The notes below the pieces were generated by a model. That model was not told the DNA's origin and did not search any database. It saw only the letters and a list, made by a program, of their open reading frames with translations. Below are positions 12,193 through 32,786 of a stretch of 64,000 bases of DNA, in pieces (position 1 is the first letter of the stretch; each line of letters begins with the position of its first letter). The stretch is taken from the NCBI GenBank assembly GCA_012270795.1, contig JAAXHO010000060.1, positions 1 through 64,000 of the forward strand, given 5' to 3'. A program made the position numbers and the translations under genes. The stretch comes from Candidatus Poribacteria bacterium (lineage in GTDB: Bacteria; Poribacteria; WGA-4E; WGA-3G).

Positions 12193-12438
12193 TCTGCATA
12201 TCGGACAGAATTGCATTGACATTTTGAGCATGGTGCTATATAATTCAATATATGCAACGTATCTTATAAATGCAATTTTGTATAAATTCACAGAGTAGCG
12301 TGTTTGGTAAATCGGGGTTAGGAACCCCTCCTAAGATTTATGGGATGGGTTGTAGAAAGATCGTAGATATATTGACATTAATTAGATATAGATTTCGGTG
12401 ATAAGAAGATTACGAAAGGTTCAATTGAGGAGGAATTT

Positions 12439-25401: not shown

Positions 25402-25672
25402 CAGGGTTATTCAGTTTTAGGTATTTTGGCAGATATTTATAACATTCGTGAATTAGATGCGTAGGTCCAAATCAAGAAATCAACGGTATGAATGCTATAT
25501 AGCATTCCCCGGGTGTGAATGCCTTATGGCATTCCCCGGGTAGAGCGAAGCGAAACCCGACATGACAACCAAAAACGCAACGTGTCGGGTTTCGCTAACG
25601 CTCTACCCGACCTACGATATAAACTTTAAGTAACACATATCAACTGATAATTCTTAAAACTGAATAACCCTG
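25402..25672. mobile_element. MITE family B, complete copy with 9-bp target duplication
   Basis: 271 bp with terminal inverted repeats 'cagggttattcagttttag' (25402-25420) and 'cttaaaactgaataaccctg' (25653-25672). The nine bases TAATCTAAT occur immediately on both sides (25393-25401 and 25673-25681), a perfect target duplication. No coding capacity; the centre is made of hairpin repeats. Directly after the right duplication lies a degenerate solo end (agggttgtttagttttaag), so this place has been hit twice. A transposase of this family must exist or have existed elsewhere. Confidence 0.88.
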
Positions 25673-25758
25673 TAATCTAATAGGGTTGTTTAGTTTTAAG
25701 AAAATATGTTAACATACGTTAATAGATTTGTTTGTTTATTGTCAGTTTGATATTCCCT

Positions 25759-25890
25759 TTGTCTGAACCAGGATTTTCAGGATTTACGGATTACCAGGAT
25801 TACCTCATCAATAGTTTTTTGATAAAGATTTATGCCAACTTATGATATAGTGCGTAATTCCTCAAACTCATAATCCTGAAAATCTAATGG
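25759..25890. repeat. Degraded copy of the 'tgtctgaaccagg' element
   Basis: Starts 'ttgtctgaaccaggatttt' and resembles the complete element at 28542-28689, but the right end is eroded (aatcctgaaaatcta, then unrelated sequence). It is part of the gene-free region 25336-26417. Confidence 0.6.
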
Positions 25891-25922
25891 TTTAAACCCA
25901 AAGGCATTCCCAAAAAAAGCAC

Positions 25923-25951
25923 TTGACACACATTGCCATACATGTTATAAT
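25923..25951 (+). promoter_or_regulatory. Perfect consensus sigma-70 promoter
   Basis: TTGACA (25923-25928), exactly 17 bases, TATAAT (25946-25951): both hexamers match the consensus fully. The next gene starts at 26418, so the leader would be about 460 bases. I see no gene in that leader, only the operator-like repeats described next. Confidence 0.8.
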
Positions 25952-26112
25952 GTATATTACATAACGGCTATGTGAAAAAAACATAAAAACTGACACATTT
26001 AGATCATCTGAAAAGCAAAATACCAAAATGTTACACTTCTTGAAAATAATATTTTTTAAAAAATTAGAAAAAATTACTTTTAACCCTTGCCATTACTGGG
26101 GTTAGAGCCAAT

Positions 26113-26241
26113 TTAAAATGTTACCAAAAAAACGAAAAAAGTGTCCATTTGGTAACATTTTAAGAATGGAGCGTCAAGGTATAATTTGAATATATCTGTT
26201 CTGATTTAAAATAGATAGCAGATTCAAACTGTATCTGCTAT
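26113..26241 (+). promoter_or_regulatory. Inverted repeats in the leader of the PspA/AAA+ genes
   Basis: A perfect 16-bp inverted repeat, ttaaaatgttaccaaa at 26113-26128 and its complement at 26148-26163, with a 19-base spacer. The half 'aaaatgttac' also occurs at ~26026. A second inverted repeat, atagcagat (26215-26223) and atctgctat (26233-26241), follows with a 9-base spacer. Both lie between the consensus promoter and the first gene and are good candidates for repressor or activator sites, or for structure in the long leader RNA. Confidence 0.6.
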
Positions 26242-26417
26242 ACTAACTCTAAACCGCATAAGCAGATAAAATGTTAATTTAATTCTCTTTACAATTTCTC
26301 TGTGATATGTTAGAATATCACGGGAAAGTTAATTAGTAACTGAATATAACGCGGATAGTATTTAACGAAAGTCTAATTCACTTAACCTTATGACACTTTG
26401 CACGCTAAAACGGGTGC

Positions 26418-27200
26418 ATGTATTTGGTGAAGACATTGATTGATAGGAATTTGTTTCGTCAGAAGTACTTACTTCATCTTATTAGCAATCCTTACACCAT
26501 TTACCCATTTGCAGCGGGTGCAATGGGGGTATTTGCGTCATGGGTCTTTAACTTAGAACCCCAGATTCTATACTTATTCGGGAGTGCTGTGATCGGTATT
26601 GGGATTCCCATAGGTGCAATGATTACAAGGTGGACTACCGGCACGGAGGATATTGCTAAACAGGTTCATGAAGAAATATTACACGAAGCACAACAAAAAC
26701 AGGAAGAGGAACTAAACGCGCTACACCACCAGTTGACAAGGGATGGCGACAGAAGAACTGAAAAGATGTTGGATGAACTCCGTTCATTGCATAAGTCCTT
26801 TCAAGAGGAAGTTCGAGAGGCAAGCTGGATGGCAAATCTGCCTTTATTGGTAAGTGCGGAAATAACGGATAAAGTATCAGAACTTTTTACACAAGCAGTG
26901 CAATGTCTTAAAGACACCCTGAAAATGCAGGAAAAATCAAGAGATTCTCAATTGGAAACTGTCAGACAGGTGTTACGACAACACAGAGAACAACAGATTG
27001 CGGACGTTCAACAGACCATAATCCAGCTTTCGCATCTGTATGCGCGTGTTCTTACTATCAGTCCTGATAGTAATGATACAGAACTTGGTCGTCTTCGCAC
27101 TGAACTGGATGAGAGTCTTGCATTTGCAAAAAAGGTGGATGAACAGATACGGGAATTCACACCAGATACCGATAAGGAAATTAATCAAGTCGTTCAGTAA
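26418..27200 (+). CDS. Two-TM, long coiled-coil protein of the PspA/AAA+ locus
   Basis: 260 residues. Two hydrophobic segments (~27-45 and ~48-69) form a tight hairpin in the inner membrane. Residues ~78-245 are almost wholly charged helix with heptad character (EEILHEAQQKQEEELNAL and onward), so a long cytoplasmic coiled coil. No named domain is recognised. The start ATG at 26418 has a poor ribosome site; a GTG at 26427 is possible. It is the first gene behind the consensus promoter and lies upstream of the PspA-like gene, consistent with a membrane anchor or sensor for it. Confidence 0.68.
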   Translation: MYLVKTLIDRNLFRQKYLLHLISNPYTIYPFAAGAMGVFASWVFNLEPQILYLFGSAVIGIGIPIGAMITRWTTGTEDIAKQVHEEILHEAQQKQEEELNALHHQLTRDGDRRTEKMLDELRSLHKSFQEEVREASWMANLPLLVSAEITDKVSELFTQAVQCLKDTLKMQEKSRDSQLETVRQVLRQHREQQIADVQQTIIQLSHLYARVLTISPDSNDTELGRLRTELDESLAFAKKVDEQIREFTPDTDKEINQVVQ

Positions 27201-27210
27201 ATATCATAGA

Positions 27211-27366
27211 GAGGAAATTGTAAAGTTTGCTCGTAGTATTGAAAAGATTAAGGTTGAGCAATCTGACACTATTGATGACCTTAATGCTGTTCGTGAACGA
27301 GTTAATGTTGATGATATGTATTCAGATATAATTTTAGAAAACAGATCAAAAGTTGAAACATCGTAA
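27211..27366 (+). pseudogene. Remnant of a second PspA-like gene
   Basis: The open frame EEIVKFARSIEKIKVEQSDT to DDMYSDIILENRSKVETS aligns with the stretch of the PspA-like protein reading SLARELDKIKTEQSDAVAEM to ADMLSGI. It has no start of its own. It suggests that a tandem PspA paralogue was lost, leaving a 3' fragment. 27405-27535 in the same gap is a repeat. Confidence 0.5.
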
Positions 27367-27404
27367 TTCATTTCAAGATCGTAAATTTTAGATTATTATA
27401 GTAG

Positions 27405-27535
27405 ATTTTAGAATTACCTGAACACTTTGAATCTATGTGTTTAGCAGACCTGATGGACTGCGTGTGTGTGTAGCACAACCTGTTAGGTTGTGTTCCGTAT
27501 CTGCACAACCTAACAGGTTGTGCAGATACGGAAAT
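27405..27535. repeat. Dispersed repeat with 'cacaacctaacaggttgtg' palindrome
   Basis: The sequence from 'ttttagaattacctgaacac' through two head-to-head 'cacaacctgttaggttgtg' units is repeated at ~63650-63780. The palindrome alone also occurs at 71-95. Confidence 0.7.
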
Positions 27536-27608
27536 GTCCAAGTAATTCTATGCTTTATTATATTATGGATTGGTTTTAAAGTTAACTATATTTAGGAGGA
27601 ATTTCACA

Positions 27609-28445
27609 ATGGCAAATGGCTTTACCCGTTTTTTTAGAGCAATATGGCACACACTCACCGGCCGAGCACACGAACAGGCTGACAAACTAATGGAAGACCC
27701 GAATGCAATTCGCGGTGCTTATGAAGATATAATCCAAGATAAGCAAAGGAATATCAAAACGTACAAGAATGCCATCGGTCAATTGATGGCTCAAGTTGAA
27801 AAGAAAAAGGGTATACTAAAAACCCTTACAGAGGATGTTGATAGGTTAGAAAAGTTGAAGACAGGTGCTATCAATAAGGCAAAAACCACTGCTGAGGAAC
27901 TGCAAAAAGCAGGGACTCCTGAGGAAGAGATCAAACAGAATCCAGATTACGTGCGGTGCGTTACCTCTTTCAACGATTTTCACTCCACTTTGGAAGAAAA
28001 AAATGCACGTATTGATGAGCTTGAAGAAGATATTGAAAACGCGCAATCAGGCATTGATTCACACAAGATCCAGATACAAAGTCTGGCCCGGGAATTGGAT
28101 AAAATCAAAACTGAGCAGTCCGATGCAGTCGCTGAAATGGTGATTGCCAAAGAACAGGAAGAGATCGCTGATATGTTATCTGGTATAAGTGCAGATGGGA
28201 CATCAGCCGATTTGACTCGGATGCGCGAAATACGAGAAAAAGCTAAAGGGCGATCAAAGGTCGCACAAGAACTCGCTGGAACTGATACACGTGCTGAAGA
28301 GGAAGAATTCCTTGCTGCTGCACGTACTTCTGCTGCTTCCGATGAATTTGATTCGCTTATATTCGGCGCAAAGCAATCCGATACTGAGAAAACAGGCGAA
28401 GGAACACCAGAAAAAACTGAAAGTGATTCCGAACTACCGTTATAG
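27609..28445 (+). CDS. PspA/IM30 (Vipp1)-family, ESCRT-III-like membrane protein
   Basis: 278 residues from the ATG at 27609 after TTTAGGAGG; an upstream in-frame start is not needed. The N-terminal amphipathic helix MANGFTRFFRAIWHTLTG and the EDPNAIR-type region (MEDPNAIRGAYEDIIQDK) are typical of PspA/IM30. Residues ~45-215 are long coiled helices, and the C-terminus is acidic and Gly/Thr-rich. PspA-family proteins polymerise on the inner membrane and remodel or protect it, and are bacterial relatives of ESCRT-III. Here the neighbours are a membrane coiled-coil protein and, downstream, a large protein and a double-AAA ATPase that could disassemble the polymer, as Vps4 does. Confidence 0.8.
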   Translation: MANGFTRFFRAIWHTLTGRAHEQADKLMEDPNAIRGAYEDIIQDKQRNIKTYKNAIGQLMAQVEKKKGILKTLTEDVDRLEKLKTGAINKAKTTAEELQKAGTPEEEIKQNPDYVRCVTSFNDFHSTLEEKNARIDELEEDIENAQSGIDSHKIQIQSLARELDKIKTEQSDAVAEMVIAKEQEEIADMLSGISADGTSADLTRMREIREKAKGRSKVAQELAGTDTRAEEEEFLAAARTSAASDEFDSLIFGAKQSDTEKTGEGTPEKTESDSELPL

Positions 28446-28453
28446 ATTGTTAT

Positions 28454-28483
28454 TATGGTGAATTATTGAAATAATTCACCATA
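28454..28483 (+). terminator. Hairpin after the PspA-like gene
   Basis: A perfect 12-bp stem (tatggtgaatta, 28454-28465, with 28472-28483) and a 6-base loop, starting nine bases after the stop. The T-rich part (atatcttgttttt) comes late, so it may be an attenuator rather than a full terminator. Confidence 0.6.
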
Positions 28484-28541
28484 GTTGGGTAATATCTTGT
28501 TTTTGTAAGATTTTAGAGTAGTTGGGTAGTCTACCTGTTCT

Positions 28542-28689
28542 TTGTCTGAACCAGGATTTACAGGATTTACAGATTACAAGGATTACCTTATCAAGGCTTT
28601 TTGATGCGAATTGATGTCAACTTTGGGAATAAAACCTGTTGAGGTAAATCCTGAAAATCTGGTAATCCTGTAAATCCTGGTTCAGACAA
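28542..28689. repeat. 148-bp inverted-repeat element ('tgtctgaaccagg' family)
   Basis: The ends ttgtctgaa and ttcagacaa bound near-complementary halves (ccaggatttacaggattt, and its complement near 28665). Best-preserved copy in the window; others are at 17490-17632, 25759-25890 and, cut by the edge, at 1-55. From 28770 to 28880 a second inverted repeat with 'gtagggacgatatgttt' follows. No gene in 28446-29014. Confidence 0.75.
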
Positions 28690-29014
28690 GTGAAAAGACT
28701 ATAGACATACGAGAAAAAAGATGGCGGACAAAAGTCATATCAATGTTTCTACAAAACTTTACACACCCAGTCCCGTAGGGACGATATGTTTATAGAAATG
28801 TGATAACCTATCTTTCTTGAGTTCCGTAGGAACGGCATATTTATTGTTGATGTGCTTTGAAACATATCGTCCCTACTAAATCAACGCTATGAATGCGCGT
28901 ATGGCATTCAGCGGAACTAAAGAAATCACTGAAATATTAATTTAATCTTCATACAGATTGTACTACATTGAAGACATCCTTGTTTACACTAATACATCAC
29001 ATAATGGAGCAATT

Positions 29015-30817
29015 ATGACAGTTAACACGTGGCATCAAGATAAAACCCCCGGTTCTTGGGAGAGTGTCTTAATATTATTGAAAGATTTTGAAAACCACGC
29101 ACATCAGATCAAGAAAGACAAAAAGAACTCTCCTGTTTCTACTGAAACACCTGAATCATTCTATAAAATCCATAATGCACTGGTAAATGAAACTAACAAA
29201 ATATTACAATCGTCTAAAGAAACAAAAATAACTAATTCAATTAAGGCTATAATAGATGAAGCTTTTGTTGAGGGATTATGGTTATCACTGGAACAGTATC
29301 CGGAAATCGTCAACCATCCAAGCATAGAAAATCTTGATACGGCTGGTTCTAAAATCTTCACACTCTTTACACCAGATGCACCATCAAACATTTCTGAGTG
29401 TGAACGCATCAAAACACAATTACAACAAAAATTCAAAATTACACCAGAGTCAGCAGAAAAACTAAAACACAAACTTTCTATACGAACTGCTCCTTTAAGA
29501 CATCGACATCAGATTATGGACAGTCTGCAAACACGATATAAGTTGGTGTCCGACAATCCTAATCTGGATGATGATATTCTTTCTTTTTTTCAATGTCTGT
29601 ATCCAGGCGCGCCATTTGATGTTGGTGAGGTAAAGCTAATAAAAACCTGCTCTGCTCTCTATTTCTGTTTGCCTTCTGTGATTAAAGAAAGTGTTGCTAA
29701 AAAAGATGCTGAACAAGAAAAGGATACAACAAATTCAGATGTAAAACAGCATACAAAAAAGAAAATAAGCTATGCACAGTTTCTCCGAAAAATATGGCAG
29801 GTAGAACCTTTTGCCCATTTTCCAGTATTCGGTACATTTGATGCGGAACATTTAGACATAACACTACGCAAACGGATTGCAGAAGACACGGGTCTATCAT
29901 TAGAACTTGTGACAACAACCCTCACGCGTATGATCGGATTTCTTCCGTTAGAGGAGCTTGATAAGTTTCTCATACACGATACTTGGGGACATCAATGGCA
30001 GGAAAGTTTATTAAATTTTGAGGAACTCTACACCGAATTATCACTTTTTGGTCGTCCTTTATCCTTCACCGAATCTGCTTCTGTATTAGGTGAACAGTTG
30101 TCTTTTTTTGATGCTTTTGTTAGAACCGATACCGGTGACATTCAACTTGATACTGAAAAACTGACAGAATTTATTGATGCTGAGTTATATGAGCGTTCTA
30201 TCATAGCATTCACCCCCATTCTCGCGGAAATGTTAGCGGATGTTGTTGAATACAAATTCTTACAATTGTACCCTGACCAAGCACATCTCATGCCAAGTTC
30301 CTCGCTCCTAAAAGATTACCCGAGCAAACTTGATTTGACACTTGAGGATCTCAGAAACTGTTTCGTCCGTGCCTCCGAGGCATTTCAGACTTGGGTGGAT
30401 TCTGATGAAGCTAAACATAGGATTCACACTGAGATTGTTGAGAAATTTGATATACCTGATAGAGAAAAAGAACATAAAGGTTTAGATCGCCTCCTTGTAA
30501 AAGCAGTGAATATCTGTAAAGAACGACTTGAACGTTTTTATCAACTGGATTGGTCCTGGGAGAAAACGGAAAATAATTGTTTACGACTCAACGCATTTAG
30601 CTTTACTGCATTAAACTTTCTGCGGATTCATACTGCTTTCCTCCAAACTTATGAATCATTGTCAAAAGTGAAAACTAAGTGTGGTTTCAAAGATGCACTT
30701 GTATTAGCAATGGGGACATTTTTTGAAAAAGAACCGCAAAGTAACATCTGGAAACTTGACCAGTTCTTAACAGAAGGATTTCTCCCCAGATGGAAAAAGT
30801 TAGCACAAGCCGGTTGA
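29015..30817 (+). CDS. Large protein of unknown function in the PspA/AAA+ locus
   Basis: 600 residues from the ATG at 29015 (ATGGAGCAATT upstream); the frame is open to 28958 but without a ribosome site. It is soluble, mostly helical, with no signal peptide or membrane segment. A charged low-complexity stretch near 225-250 (KKDAEQEKDTTNSD) separates an N-terminal from a C-terminal half. The motif H321-D-T-W-G-H326-Q-W stands out as a possible metal or active site, but I cannot assign a family. Its last 28 bases overlap the AAA+ gene start, so the two are translationally coupled and probably act together. Confidence 0.65.
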   Translation: MTVNTWHQDKTPGSWESVLILLKDFENHAHQIKKDKKNSPVSTETPESFYKIHNALVNETNKILQSSKETKITNSIKAIIDEAFVEGLWLSLEQYPEIVNHPSIENLDTAGSKIFTLFTPDAPSNISECERIKTQLQQKFKITPESAEKLKHKLSIRTAPLRHRHQIMDSLQTRYKLVSDNPNLDDDILSFFQCLYPGAPFDVGEVKLIKTCSALYFCLPSVIKESVAKKDAEQEKDTTNSDVKQHTKKKISYAQFLRKIWQVEPFAHFPVFGTFDAEHLDITLRKRIAEDTGLSLELVTTTLTRMIGFLPLEELDKFLIHDTWGHQWQESLLNFEELYTELSLFGRPLSFTESASVLGEQLSFFDAFVRTDTGDIQLDTEKLTEFIDAELYERSIIAFTPILAEMLADVVEYKFLQLYPDQAHLMPSSSLLKDYPSKLDLTLEDLRNCFVRASEAFQTWVDSDEAKHRIHTEIVEKFDIPDREKEHKGLDRLLVKAVNICKERLERFYQLDWSWEKTENNCLRLNAFSFTALNFLRIHTAFLQTYESLSKVKTKCGFKDALVLAMGTFFEKEPQSNIWKLDQFLTEGFLPRWKKLAQAG

Positions 30818-32697
30818 TGTCTTTAAAAAAAGGGGGAAACCCAATCGCAATTAAGGAACCTTCTTACCAATTCAGAACTGATGCTGGACTGCTAATTAAC
30901 TCAGGTACATCACGTAGTATTGTCCTTCACGGAAATATCCACGACCTCTTTTTTATTGAAGAAGATAATGTTGAGGATTACATACCCCTTGTCCCCTTTC
31001 TTACGCGTAGTTGGGATATACCTGGTTTTATCCTTATAGTATATGAACTCAATGGACCCCTACGTTTTCTGCATGAAAAAGACCGGGATAAACTCAAAGA
31101 CGCTTTTAATGTGTGGCGTGGCAATACTGAATCTTCAGAGAAAAAGATTTCCAGTCTATATGCACTCCCCAAAGACATGGAGCGCAAAACCAGAAAAGCA
31201 GCTAAATCCTTAGATATATCTGATGGATTGTTTGAGCAATATCTGAACGATGCGATCGGCAGTCCAACATTAGCACTGGAACTGCTACGCCAATTCTGTT
31301 TGATTTCTCGTTCCACCAATATTCAGGGTAAAAAGTTCTTAAAAGAAAAATTGGTCATACTTATTGAAGCCACGGACATGCTGCTCCCCGAAGGTGAAAT
31401 CCGAAGTCTCAACTTAGCCGATAGACACAGAATCAGTATCGTTCAGGATTGGATATCAGATTCCGATTTCATGAAGGCTACTGACACCGTCGTCTTCATA
31501 GCTGAGTCAAAAAGTTTGATTAATTCACGCATTATACGGCTTCCGCAGGTTGTTGATGTGGAGGTACAATCTCCATTAGTAGATACGCGTAGGCATTTTA
31601 TCTCATGGTTCAACCGAACCCAGAAACCTAAAGGTAAGGAATTAAATCTATGGGGTAGTCAGTCGCAGCTGGCGGTGTTAACTGCTGGTCTGTCCATTCA
31701 GGCATTACGACAACTCCTCGTATCTGCTTGTTATTCTGGAGAAAAACTTCAACCGGAAGATGTTATAGAGAAGGTCTCGGAATTTATACAAGCTCAGTTA
31801 GGTGAGGATGTTGTTGAGTTTAAAAAACCCGCGCATTCACTAAATGATATAGTTGGAAACACAAAACTTGTAGAATACCTAAGAACACAAATCATTCCGC
31901 GCATCACGTCAACAGGAAAAGATTCACTTTCAGGATTGAGTGTTTGCGGACCTATCGGCAGTGGCAAGACCTTTATCTTTGAAGGATTAGCAGGAGAACT
32001 GGATATCCCTGTGTTAATATTGAAGAATATCCGCAGCATGTGGTTCGGTCAAACAGATGTAATTTTTGAACGTCTGAGGCGTTTGTTGATGGCACTCGTA
32101 AATGTCTTAATTTTTGTAGATGAAGCGGATACACAGTTTGGGGCGGTAGGAAGGGACGCACACGCAACTGAACGTAGACTTACAGGAAAAATACAAGCGA
32201 TGATGTCTGATCCGCAATTACGCGGTAAAATCACATGGCTATTGATGACTGCACGTATCTATAATCTCTCGCCGGACCTCCGAAGAGAGGGAAGGGTTGG
32301 TGACATTGTGATTCCTGTTCTTGATCCCACAGGAGATGATCGAGAGACCTTTTTACGCTGGACGCTTAGTAATGTCTATAAAGGGAAGATACCAGAAGAG
32401 GAATTCAAACTCATCCTTTCACAGACAGAAGGCTATTCTGCTGCGAGTTTCGCTTCTCTCCGCGCTGACCTAGAGGCTGTCAAAAGTCGAGAAGGTGAAT
32501 TATCTATAAACGAAATCGTTGACGTTATCTCTGATAGGATACTCCCCAATATAGGTCCAATTCGTCAATATCAGACCTTACAAGCCTTTCTCAATTGCAC
32601 TCGTAAATCCCTACTGCCAGGTGATTACTCACCGGAAATCCGAGAATCATGGCGGCAACAGATAGCACAACTTGAAGCCATGGGTGTTAGCGGATAA
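30790..32697 (+). CDS. AAA+ ATPase with a degenerate first AAA module
   Basis: 635 residues from 30790 (AGAAGG upstream), or 626 from the ATG at 30817 that overlaps the previous stop as TGATG. The C-terminal AAA+ module (~350-560) is complete: Walker A GPIGSGKT with Lys393, Walker B LIFVDEAD with Asp444-Glu445, and an arginine-rich second-region-of-homology segment (SPDLRREGRVGDIVI). Residues ~25-330 resemble a first AAA module that lost Walker A but kept a Walker-B-like LVILIEATD. The active module plus PspA-family gene upstream recalls ESCRT-III/Vps4 partnership: the ATPase may remodel PspA polymers. This is inference from context. Confidence 0.78.
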   Translation: MEKVSTSRLMSLKKGGNPIAIKEPSYQFRTDAGLLINSGTSRSIVLHGNIHDLFFIEEDNVEDYIPLVPFLTRSWDIPGFILIVYELNGPLRFLHEKDRDKLKDAFNVWRGNTESSEKKISSLYALPKDMERKTRKAAKSLDISDGLFEQYLNDAIGSPTLALELLRQFCLISRSTNIQGKKFLKEKLVILIEATDMLLPEGEIRSLNLADRHRISIVQDWISDSDFMKATDTVVFIAESKSLINSRIIRLPQVVDVEVQSPLVDTRRHFISWFNRTQKPKGKELNLWGSQSQLAVLTAGLSIQALRQLLVSACYSGEKLQPEDVIEKVSEFIQAQLGEDVVEFKKPAHSLNDIVGNTKLVEYLRTQIIPRITSTGKDSLSGLSVCGPIGSGKTFIFEGLAGELDIPVLILKNIRSMWFGQTDVIFERLRRLLMALVNVLIFVDEADTQFGAVGRDAHATERRLTGKIQAMMSDPQLRGKITWLLMTARIYNLSPDLRREGRVGDIVIPVLDPTGDDRETFLRWTLSNVYKGKIPEEEFKLILSQTEGYSAASFASLRADLEAVKSREGELSINEIVDVISDRILPNIGPIRQYQTLQAFLNCTRKSLLPGDYSPEIRESWRQQIAQLEAMGVSG

Positions 32698-32729
32698 TAG
32701 GAAAATAAGAAGAAATGAAAGGAGCAATT

Positions 32730-32786
32730 ATGGGGATAAATAGAAAATCTGAGAATTGGTTAGTATTACAAAATGCATGTAGTTAA
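32730..32786 (+). other. Tiny ORF with a strong ribosome site, probably a gene remnant
   Basis: 'GAAAGGAGCAATT' stands before an ATG at 32730 and an 18-codon frame (MGINRKSENWLVLQNACS) that ends against the stop of the convergent oxidoreductase gene. The ribosome site is as good as those of real genes here, so it may be the stump of a fifth gene of the PspA/AAA+ set. Confidence 0.35.

What the first reader, a model, noticed from the sequence alone, without database searches (positions are those of the whole stretch)
25923..32786. A PspA / double-AAA+ locus resembling a bacterial ESCRT-III-Vps4 pair with two new partners
Seen: behind a perfect consensus promoter lie a two-TM coiled-coil protein, a PspA/IM30-like protein, a 600-residue unknown protein with an H-D-x-W-G-H motif, and an ATPase with one degenerate and one complete AAA module. 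The last two overlap in reading frame. Known: PspA/Vipp1 are ESCRT-III relatives and Vps4 is an AAA+ that disassembles ESCRT-III polymers. Inference: this may be a membrane remodelling or protection system in which the ATPase and its coupled partner recycle a PspA polymer anchored by the two-TM protein.
Basis: partly seen in the sequence, partly recalled or inferred. Interest (0 to 1): 0.85.

Follow-up and report, generated by a model that had tools for sequence, protein, structure and literature searches.

The report
PspA remodelling motor with optional arm
In sponge-associated Poribacteria a membrane-coating PspA protein is always encoded beside a p97-like protein-pulling motor, an already published bacterial counterpart of the eukaryotic ESCRT-III/Vps4 pair; the new point is that a 600-residue protein of unknown fold and a small membrane protein come and go together with a separately encoded cell-envelope module.

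Summary
The four genes are real. The window lies in a Candidatus Poribacteria genome. P2 is a divergent PspA/Vipp1 protein. P4 is a p97-type double-AAA protein with a dead N-terminal and an intact C-terminal module. P1 is a two-TM coiled-coil protein. P3 is a helical protein with no sequence or fold match.

PspA beside a double-AAA protein with an inactive N-terminal copy, and its extended operon with PBP-OmpA proteins, is already published (mSystems 2024, PMC11237479), so the headline pair is not new.

New here: (1) the pair is universal in the window's family, but P3 is in only 36 of 58 genomes. (2) P3 co-inherits with P1 (7 of 7 independent changes) and with a PBP-OmpA protein (6 of 6 informative), although in the window's genus the latter lies elsewhere in the genome. 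(3) An out-group carries a decayed P3 relic between PspA and AAA, so the window's gene order looks ancestral. (4) The PspA partner ends in a conserved SELP(L/I/V) tail after a fast-evolving linker; tandem short PspA copies lack it.

Best reading: a PspA-remodelling motor that grips the PspA tail, with P1/P3/PBP-OmpA as a dispensable envelope-sensing arm.

The parts
25923..25951 (+). perfect sigma-70-type promoter match (TTGACA-17-TATAAT, TG extended), 495 bp before P1
   Evidence: not recovered upstream of P1 in relatives
26288..26316 (+). weaker promoter-like site (TTTACA-17-TAGAAT) about 130 bp before P1; similar sites recur there in the genus
26418..27200 (+). P1: membrane protein with two predicted TM helices and a coiled coil; 3' end altered relative to the nearest relative
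27200..27394 (+). remnant of a short tandem PspA paralogue (intact in the nearest relative, L034:1137-1745); about 570 bp deleted here, including the end of P1
27609..28445 (+). P2: divergent PspA/IM30/Vipp1 protein, 278 aa
28425..28442 (+). C-terminal peptide DSELPL of P2, conserved after a poorly conserved linker
28540..28930 (.). interspersed repeat sequence in the P2-P3 gap (related copies at about 17.5 and 25.75 kb)
29015..30817 (+). P3: 600-aa helical protein without Pfam, NCBIfam, PHROG, PADLOC or PDB match; found intact only in one Poribacteria family
29975..30004 (+). P3 motif HDTWGHQWQE (residues 321-330), invariant in 30 sequences
30790..32697 (+). P4: double-AAA protein (likely start ATG at 30817)
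30868..31809 (+). P4 N-terminal degenerate AAA module, D1-like, no P-loop in any homologue
31948..31971 (+). P4 Walker A GPIGSGKT of the intact C-terminal module
32038..32055 (+). P4 aromatic pore loop MWFGQT
32107..32133 (+). P4 Walker B LIFVDEADT

Best explanation
This is the cytoplasmic half of a PspA-remodelling system. P2 (PspA) coats or polymerises on the inner membrane; P4, a p97-like motor with a dead D1 and a live D2, binds the conserved C-terminal tail of P2 and pulls subunits out of the polymer through its pore, resetting it. This core pair is in every genome of the family. P1 (two TM helices plus coiled coil), P3 (cytosolic, helical) and a periplasmic module (two NMT1/PBP-OmpA proteins and a vWA protein, at G000:C199 about 32.9-37.4 kb) form an optional arm that most likely senses a ligand or the cell wall outside and relays it through P1 to the PspA polymer, with P3 as adaptor or enzyme inside. 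Shown: gene content, linkage, co-inheritance, tail conservation, motor fold and motifs. Inferred: polymer formation, tail binding, pulling, signal relay, and every statement about what P3 does.
For: PspA and AAA co-occur and share a contig in 55 of 58 family genomes; the other three are at contig ends or in fragmented assemblies. The seven order/class relatives with the AAA also have a PspA, in the same locus where contigs allow. P4 aligns over about 650 columns to p97 D1-D2 (Foldseek 6e-17), nearest PDB sequences VAT/Cdc48/AFG2; pore loop, Walker A and Walker B kept in 21 of 21. P2 matches PF04012, and its profile hits Vipp1/PspA chains at 1.8e-5. P2 tail: linker identity 0.38, tail 0.85, S, L and P in 18 of 18; the short paralogues lack it. 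P1 follows P3 in 7 of 7 independent changes and PBP-OmpA in 6 of 6 that differ (p 0.016 and 0.031), although PBP-OmpA is elsewhere in the genome in g1 and g3. Out-group G064 has NMT1-OmpA, vWA, PBP-OmpA, P1, PspA and AAA in one run, with a P3 relic before AAA.
Against: No experiment. The tail is not kept in the distant order/class relatives, whose PspA ends in GE or RPEI. P2 itself is under Pfam's cut-off (30.8 against 33.9 bits), and a designed coiled coil scores as well as Vipp1 against its profile, so part of that signal is coiled-coil composition. P3 and P1 are missing from 22 family genomes, so the motor works without them. Binding of the tail to P4 was not modelled.
Confidence: 0.58

Rival explanations
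1. A transporter-regulation module: the ancestral partner is a NitT/TauT-type ABC importer with PBP-OmpA receptors, and PspA plus AAA assemble or switch that importer rather than remodel membranes. P3 took the place of the lost transporter.
For: Relatives carry substrate-binding protein, permease and ABC ATPase between PspA and AAA (G070, G059, G062, G071); NMT1 and OmpA domains. The 2024 paper also suggests a link to solute transport.
Against: In the window's family no ABC genes were seen in the inspected loci, yet PspA-AAA is universal. The P3 relic in G064 lies in a locus without ABC genes.
Confidence: 0.2
2. P3 is the real client: a metal-dependent helical enzyme (invariant HDTWGHQWQE plus E390, E393, E405, D409, E412) maintained by the AAA motor, with PspA only as membrane dock.
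For: Invariant His/Asp/Glu set on predicted helices; P3 lies directly before AAA in genera g1 and g3 and as a relic in G064.
Against: 22 family genomes keep PspA-AAA without P3; in g2 and g4 P3 is far from AAA; no fold or family match; the stretch after the motif is low-confidence in the model.
Confidence: 0.12
3. The four genes are neighbours by chance or by repeat-driven rearrangement, and P3 is a passenger.
For: Gaps of 408 and 569 bp with interspersed repeats; P3 is elsewhere in g2 and g4.
Against: Co-inheritance of P3 with P1 and PBP-OmpA over 7 independent changes; a P3 relic at the same position in another family.
Confidence: 0.06

Closest known systems
PspA plus double-AAA protein with inactive N-terminal copy, and its extended PBPB-OmpA/ABC operon (mSystems 2024, PMC11237479; examples AEY64321.1, OGG56892.1)
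   Same: PspA gene with a double-AAA gene whose N-terminal module is dead; TM-segment protein, PBP-OmpA and ABC genes in the longer operon; same proposed role
   Different: Here P3 is added, ABC genes are absent from the inspected family loci, the system is split over two loci, and PspA has tandem short copies and a conserved tail. The paper's supplement was not readable here.
Vps4 / CdvC (ESCRT-IV)
   Same: classical-clade AAA with aromatic pore loop, encoded next to an ESCRT-III-superfamily gene; may work alike
   Different: no MIT domain, two AAA modules, closer by score to Cdc48/VAT/p97
Cdc48/p97/VAT double-AAA motors
   Same: D1-D2 architecture; best sequence and fold matches
   Different: no match to the p97-type N domain; D1 lacks a P-loop in all 21 homologues
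PspA / Vipp1 / IM30
   Same: match to PF04012 and to Vipp1/PspA structures
   Different: divergent (under the Pfam cut-off), with an added linker and SELP(L/I/V) tail

Membership tests
PspA/Vipp1 branch of the ESCRT-III superfamily | PspA_IM30 profile over most of the length | tested here: met
   PF04012 best Pfam hit, 30.8 bits, E 2.8e-7, residues 9-243, but under the cut-off 33.9; orthologue in G064 35.9 bits, over the cut-off; Vipp1 chains 1.8e-5
PspA/Vipp1 branch of the ESCRT-III superfamily | forms rods or rings on membranes | not testable with these tools
   needs protein
Vps4 (ESCRT-IV) | N-terminal MIT domain | tested here: not met
   N-terminal half models as an AAA module; no MIT hit in Pfam. 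MIT is a criterion in PMC10936438
Vps4 (ESCRT-IV) | single AAA module | tested here: not met
   two AAA modules aligned over p97 D1-D2
Vps4 (ESCRT-IV) | aromatic pore loop and intact Walker A and B in a classical-clade AAA | tested here: met
   MWFGQT, GPIGSGKT, LIFVDEADT
Vps4 (ESCRT-IV) | encoded with an ESCRT-III-superfamily gene | tested here: met
   next to PspA wherever contigs allow
PspA-linked double-AAA system of PMC11237479 | two AAA modules, N-terminal one inactive, next to PspA | tested here: met
PspA-linked double-AAA system of PMC11237479 | PBP-OmpA protein in the system (optional in the paper) | tested here: met
   same genome, other contig; same locus in G064 and G070
PspA-linked double-AAA system of PMC11237479 | ABC ATPase and permease in the operon (optional in the paper) | tested here: not met
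   not in the inspected family loci; present in G070, G059, G062, G071
Protease-type AAA (FtsH, PAN) | peptidase domain, or an FtsH/PAN model over its cut-off | tested here: not met
   only PF00004 passes its cut-off; FtsH and PAN models far below theirs
Classical PSP system | PspB, PspC or PspF genes nearby | not tested
   no dedicated search was made

The most novel reading that the evidence does not exclude
P3 founds a new protein family, with a new fold or a new metal-binding helical enzyme, that together with P1 and the PBP-OmpA proteins controls a bacterial PspA polymer and its p97-like motor: an envelope-to-cytoplasm signalling arm for a bacterial ESCRT-III-like machine that is lost or gained as one unit.
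Probability: 0.3. Interest if true: 0.72.

Novelty: new variant of a known kind. Interest (0 to 1): 0.52.

Why it matters
PspA and Vipp1 are accepted ESCRT-III relatives, but whether bacteria have a Vps4-like recycler is untested; [quoted passage not shown] Here a Cdc48-type double AAA with a dead D1 is strictly tied to one PspA copy, and that copy alone carries a conserved C-terminal peptide. That makes the question 'does a bacterial AAA recycle PspA?' testable with two proteins and one short peptide, and the co-inherited P1/P3/PBP-OmpA arm points to what may control it.

Tried and rejected
P3 in Pfam, NCBIfam, PADLOC, PHROGs: nothing for the window protein; weak hits in single members of its alignment (best Terpene_syn_C_2 2e-4 in 3 of 30; TENA_THI-4 0.024 in one) were inconsistent between members and not followed. 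P3 fold against PDB: nothing below E 0.5. P3 in GTDB genome contigs: 33 loci, all Poribacteria (that scan relies on two short peptides and would miss remote relatives); none in viral contigs or plasmids. P1 against its positional counterpart in G059/G062 and against P2 by profile comparison: no significant similarity, so that equivalence is positional only. Plasmid homologues of P4 (about 26% identity) have no annotated PspA within 8-9 kb: too distant to decide. PADLOC hits of P1 and P2 look like coiled-coil noise, so no defence role is claimed. A link with the compartments reported for Poribacteria: the 2016 study describes bipolar structures that did not appear membrane bound (PMC5087111), so none is claimed.

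Full report
Observation. The genome (G000, 5.18 Mb, 298 contigs) belongs to Candidatus Poribacteria, judging by the record titles of all 33 loci found with P3. The perfect promoter is real but is not seen upstream of P1 in relatives, where a weaker site nearer the gene recurs in the genus. The gaps between P1, P2 and P3 contain interspersed repeats, so one operon is plausible but not shown. The P3/P4 overlap depends on the start codon chosen; relatives have gaps.

What the proteins are. P2 is a divergent PspA: PF04012 at 2.8e-7, just under the cut-off, an orthologue over the cut-off, and profile hits to Vipp1/PspA structures at 1.8e-5, where a designed coiled coil also scores 2.7e-6. P4 is a double-AAA protein: its model aligns to p97 D1-D2 over about 650 columns, and the nearest solved sequences are VAT, Cdc48 and AFG2. 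The N-terminal module has no P-loop in any of 21 homologues (in two of them the N terminus is incomplete), while the C-terminal module keeps Walker A, Walker B and an aromatic pore loop in all. P1 has two hydrophobic segments and a coiled-coil-like remainder. P3 is helical (model pTM 0.76, mean pLDDT 75.7), with no family hit and no fold hit. Its stretch HDTWGHQWQE is invariant in 30 sequences together with several Glu and Asp, but the segment just after it is low-confidence in the model.

Distribution. Of 98 genomes (58 in the family), P4 is in 58 of 58 family genomes and in 7 beyond. P2 is in 56 of the 58 and in the same 7; by my reading of the two hit lists it shares a contig with P4 in 55, the rest being contig ends or fragmented assemblies. 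P3 is in 36 of 58, P1 in 34 (the two P3 genomes without P1 are G008 and G010, where the contig is short or the assembly fragmented), and the PBP-OmpA protein in 37: all P3 genomes plus G051, a fragmented assembly almost identical in P4 to the P3-bearing G032. On a P4 tree of 55 family genomes the P3 label needs 7 changes. In independent pairs P1 follows P3 in 7 of 7 and PBP-OmpA in 6 of 6 that differ (sign test p 0.016 and 0.031). These p-values are modest, rest on one gene tree, and were computed after the pattern had been seen. Gains cannot be told from losses.

Gene order. Genera g1 and g3: P1 - PspA (1 to 4 copies) - P3 - AAA, with the PBP-OmpA genes elsewhere. Genera g2 and g4: P1 - P3 directly downstream of NMT1-OmpA, vWA and PBP-OmpA genes, and PspA - AAA elsewhere. 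Out-group G064: NMT1-OmpA, vWA, PBP-OmpA, P1, PspA and AAA in one run. The 355-bp gap before its AAA contains a degraded relic of the last part of P3 (E 1.7e-4 in a whole-genome profile search, running to the matching stop, with a weak second piece in another frame). This places P3 between PspA and AAA in a common ancestor, although horizontal exchange cannot be excluded. G070 and more distant relatives have ABC transporter genes in that position.

Tail. Among 18 full-length P2 orthologues the linker before the C terminus has mean pairwise identity 0.38 and the last six residues 0.85, with S, L and P in 18 of 18 and E in 17. The short tandem paralogues lack linker and tail. This resembles the division in ESCRT-III between subunits with and without Vps4-binding motifs; it is a resemblance, not a test. 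Two other PspA-family genes exist in the genome; only the one on C192 was read to its end, and it has no such tail.

Known or new. The 2024 PSP survey (PMC11237479, passages read) already reports PspA with a double-AAA protein whose N-terminal copy is inactive, TM-segment proteins, PBPB-OmpA proteins and ABC genes, and proposes ATP-dependent membrane remodelling comparable to Snf7-Vps4. Not found in the text read: P3, the tail, the co-inheritance and the relic. Its supplement could not be opened.

Mechanism. The best-supported account is a motor (P4) that extracts P2 from a membrane polymer by its tail, with P1/P3/PBP-OmpA as an optional envelope-sensing arm. Polymerisation, binding, pulling and relay are inferred. 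'Works like Vps4' is plausible; 'is a Vps4' is not, since two defining features were tested and not met.

Noticed in passing
27200-27394: Remnant of a short PspA paralogue joined to the end of P1: about 570 bp present in the nearest relative (L034:1012-1581) is missing here.
   Followed up: yes
L116:8865-9219 (G064): Degraded relic of the P3 C-terminus between PspA and AAA in an out-group genome.
   Followed up: yes
25490-25625, 25740-25900, 27440-27545, 28530-28720: Several families of interspersed, partly palindromic repeats, with further copies near 4.7, 17.5-17.9 and 63.7 kb of the window.
   Followed up: partly
12216-12244: A second perfect TTGACA-17-TATAAT match in the window.
   Followed up: no
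L034:5346-7215 (G013): The AAA gene of the closest relative is split over two frames: frameshift or assembly error.
   Followed up: no
L106:8446-9603 (G035): A 385-aa ORF, possibly of a transposable element, sits between PspA and AAA; both flanking genes look intact.
   Followed up: no
L181:6895-12278 (G000:C199): NMT1-OmpA, vWA, PBP-OmpA and a protein with a twin-arginine-like start in a row: the distant second half of the system in the window's own genome.
   Followed up: partly
L111:7785-8369 (G005): In a genome without P1 and P3 an unrelated 194-aa protein with a hydrophobic segment lies between the two PspA copies, perhaps a stand-in for P1.
   Followed up: no
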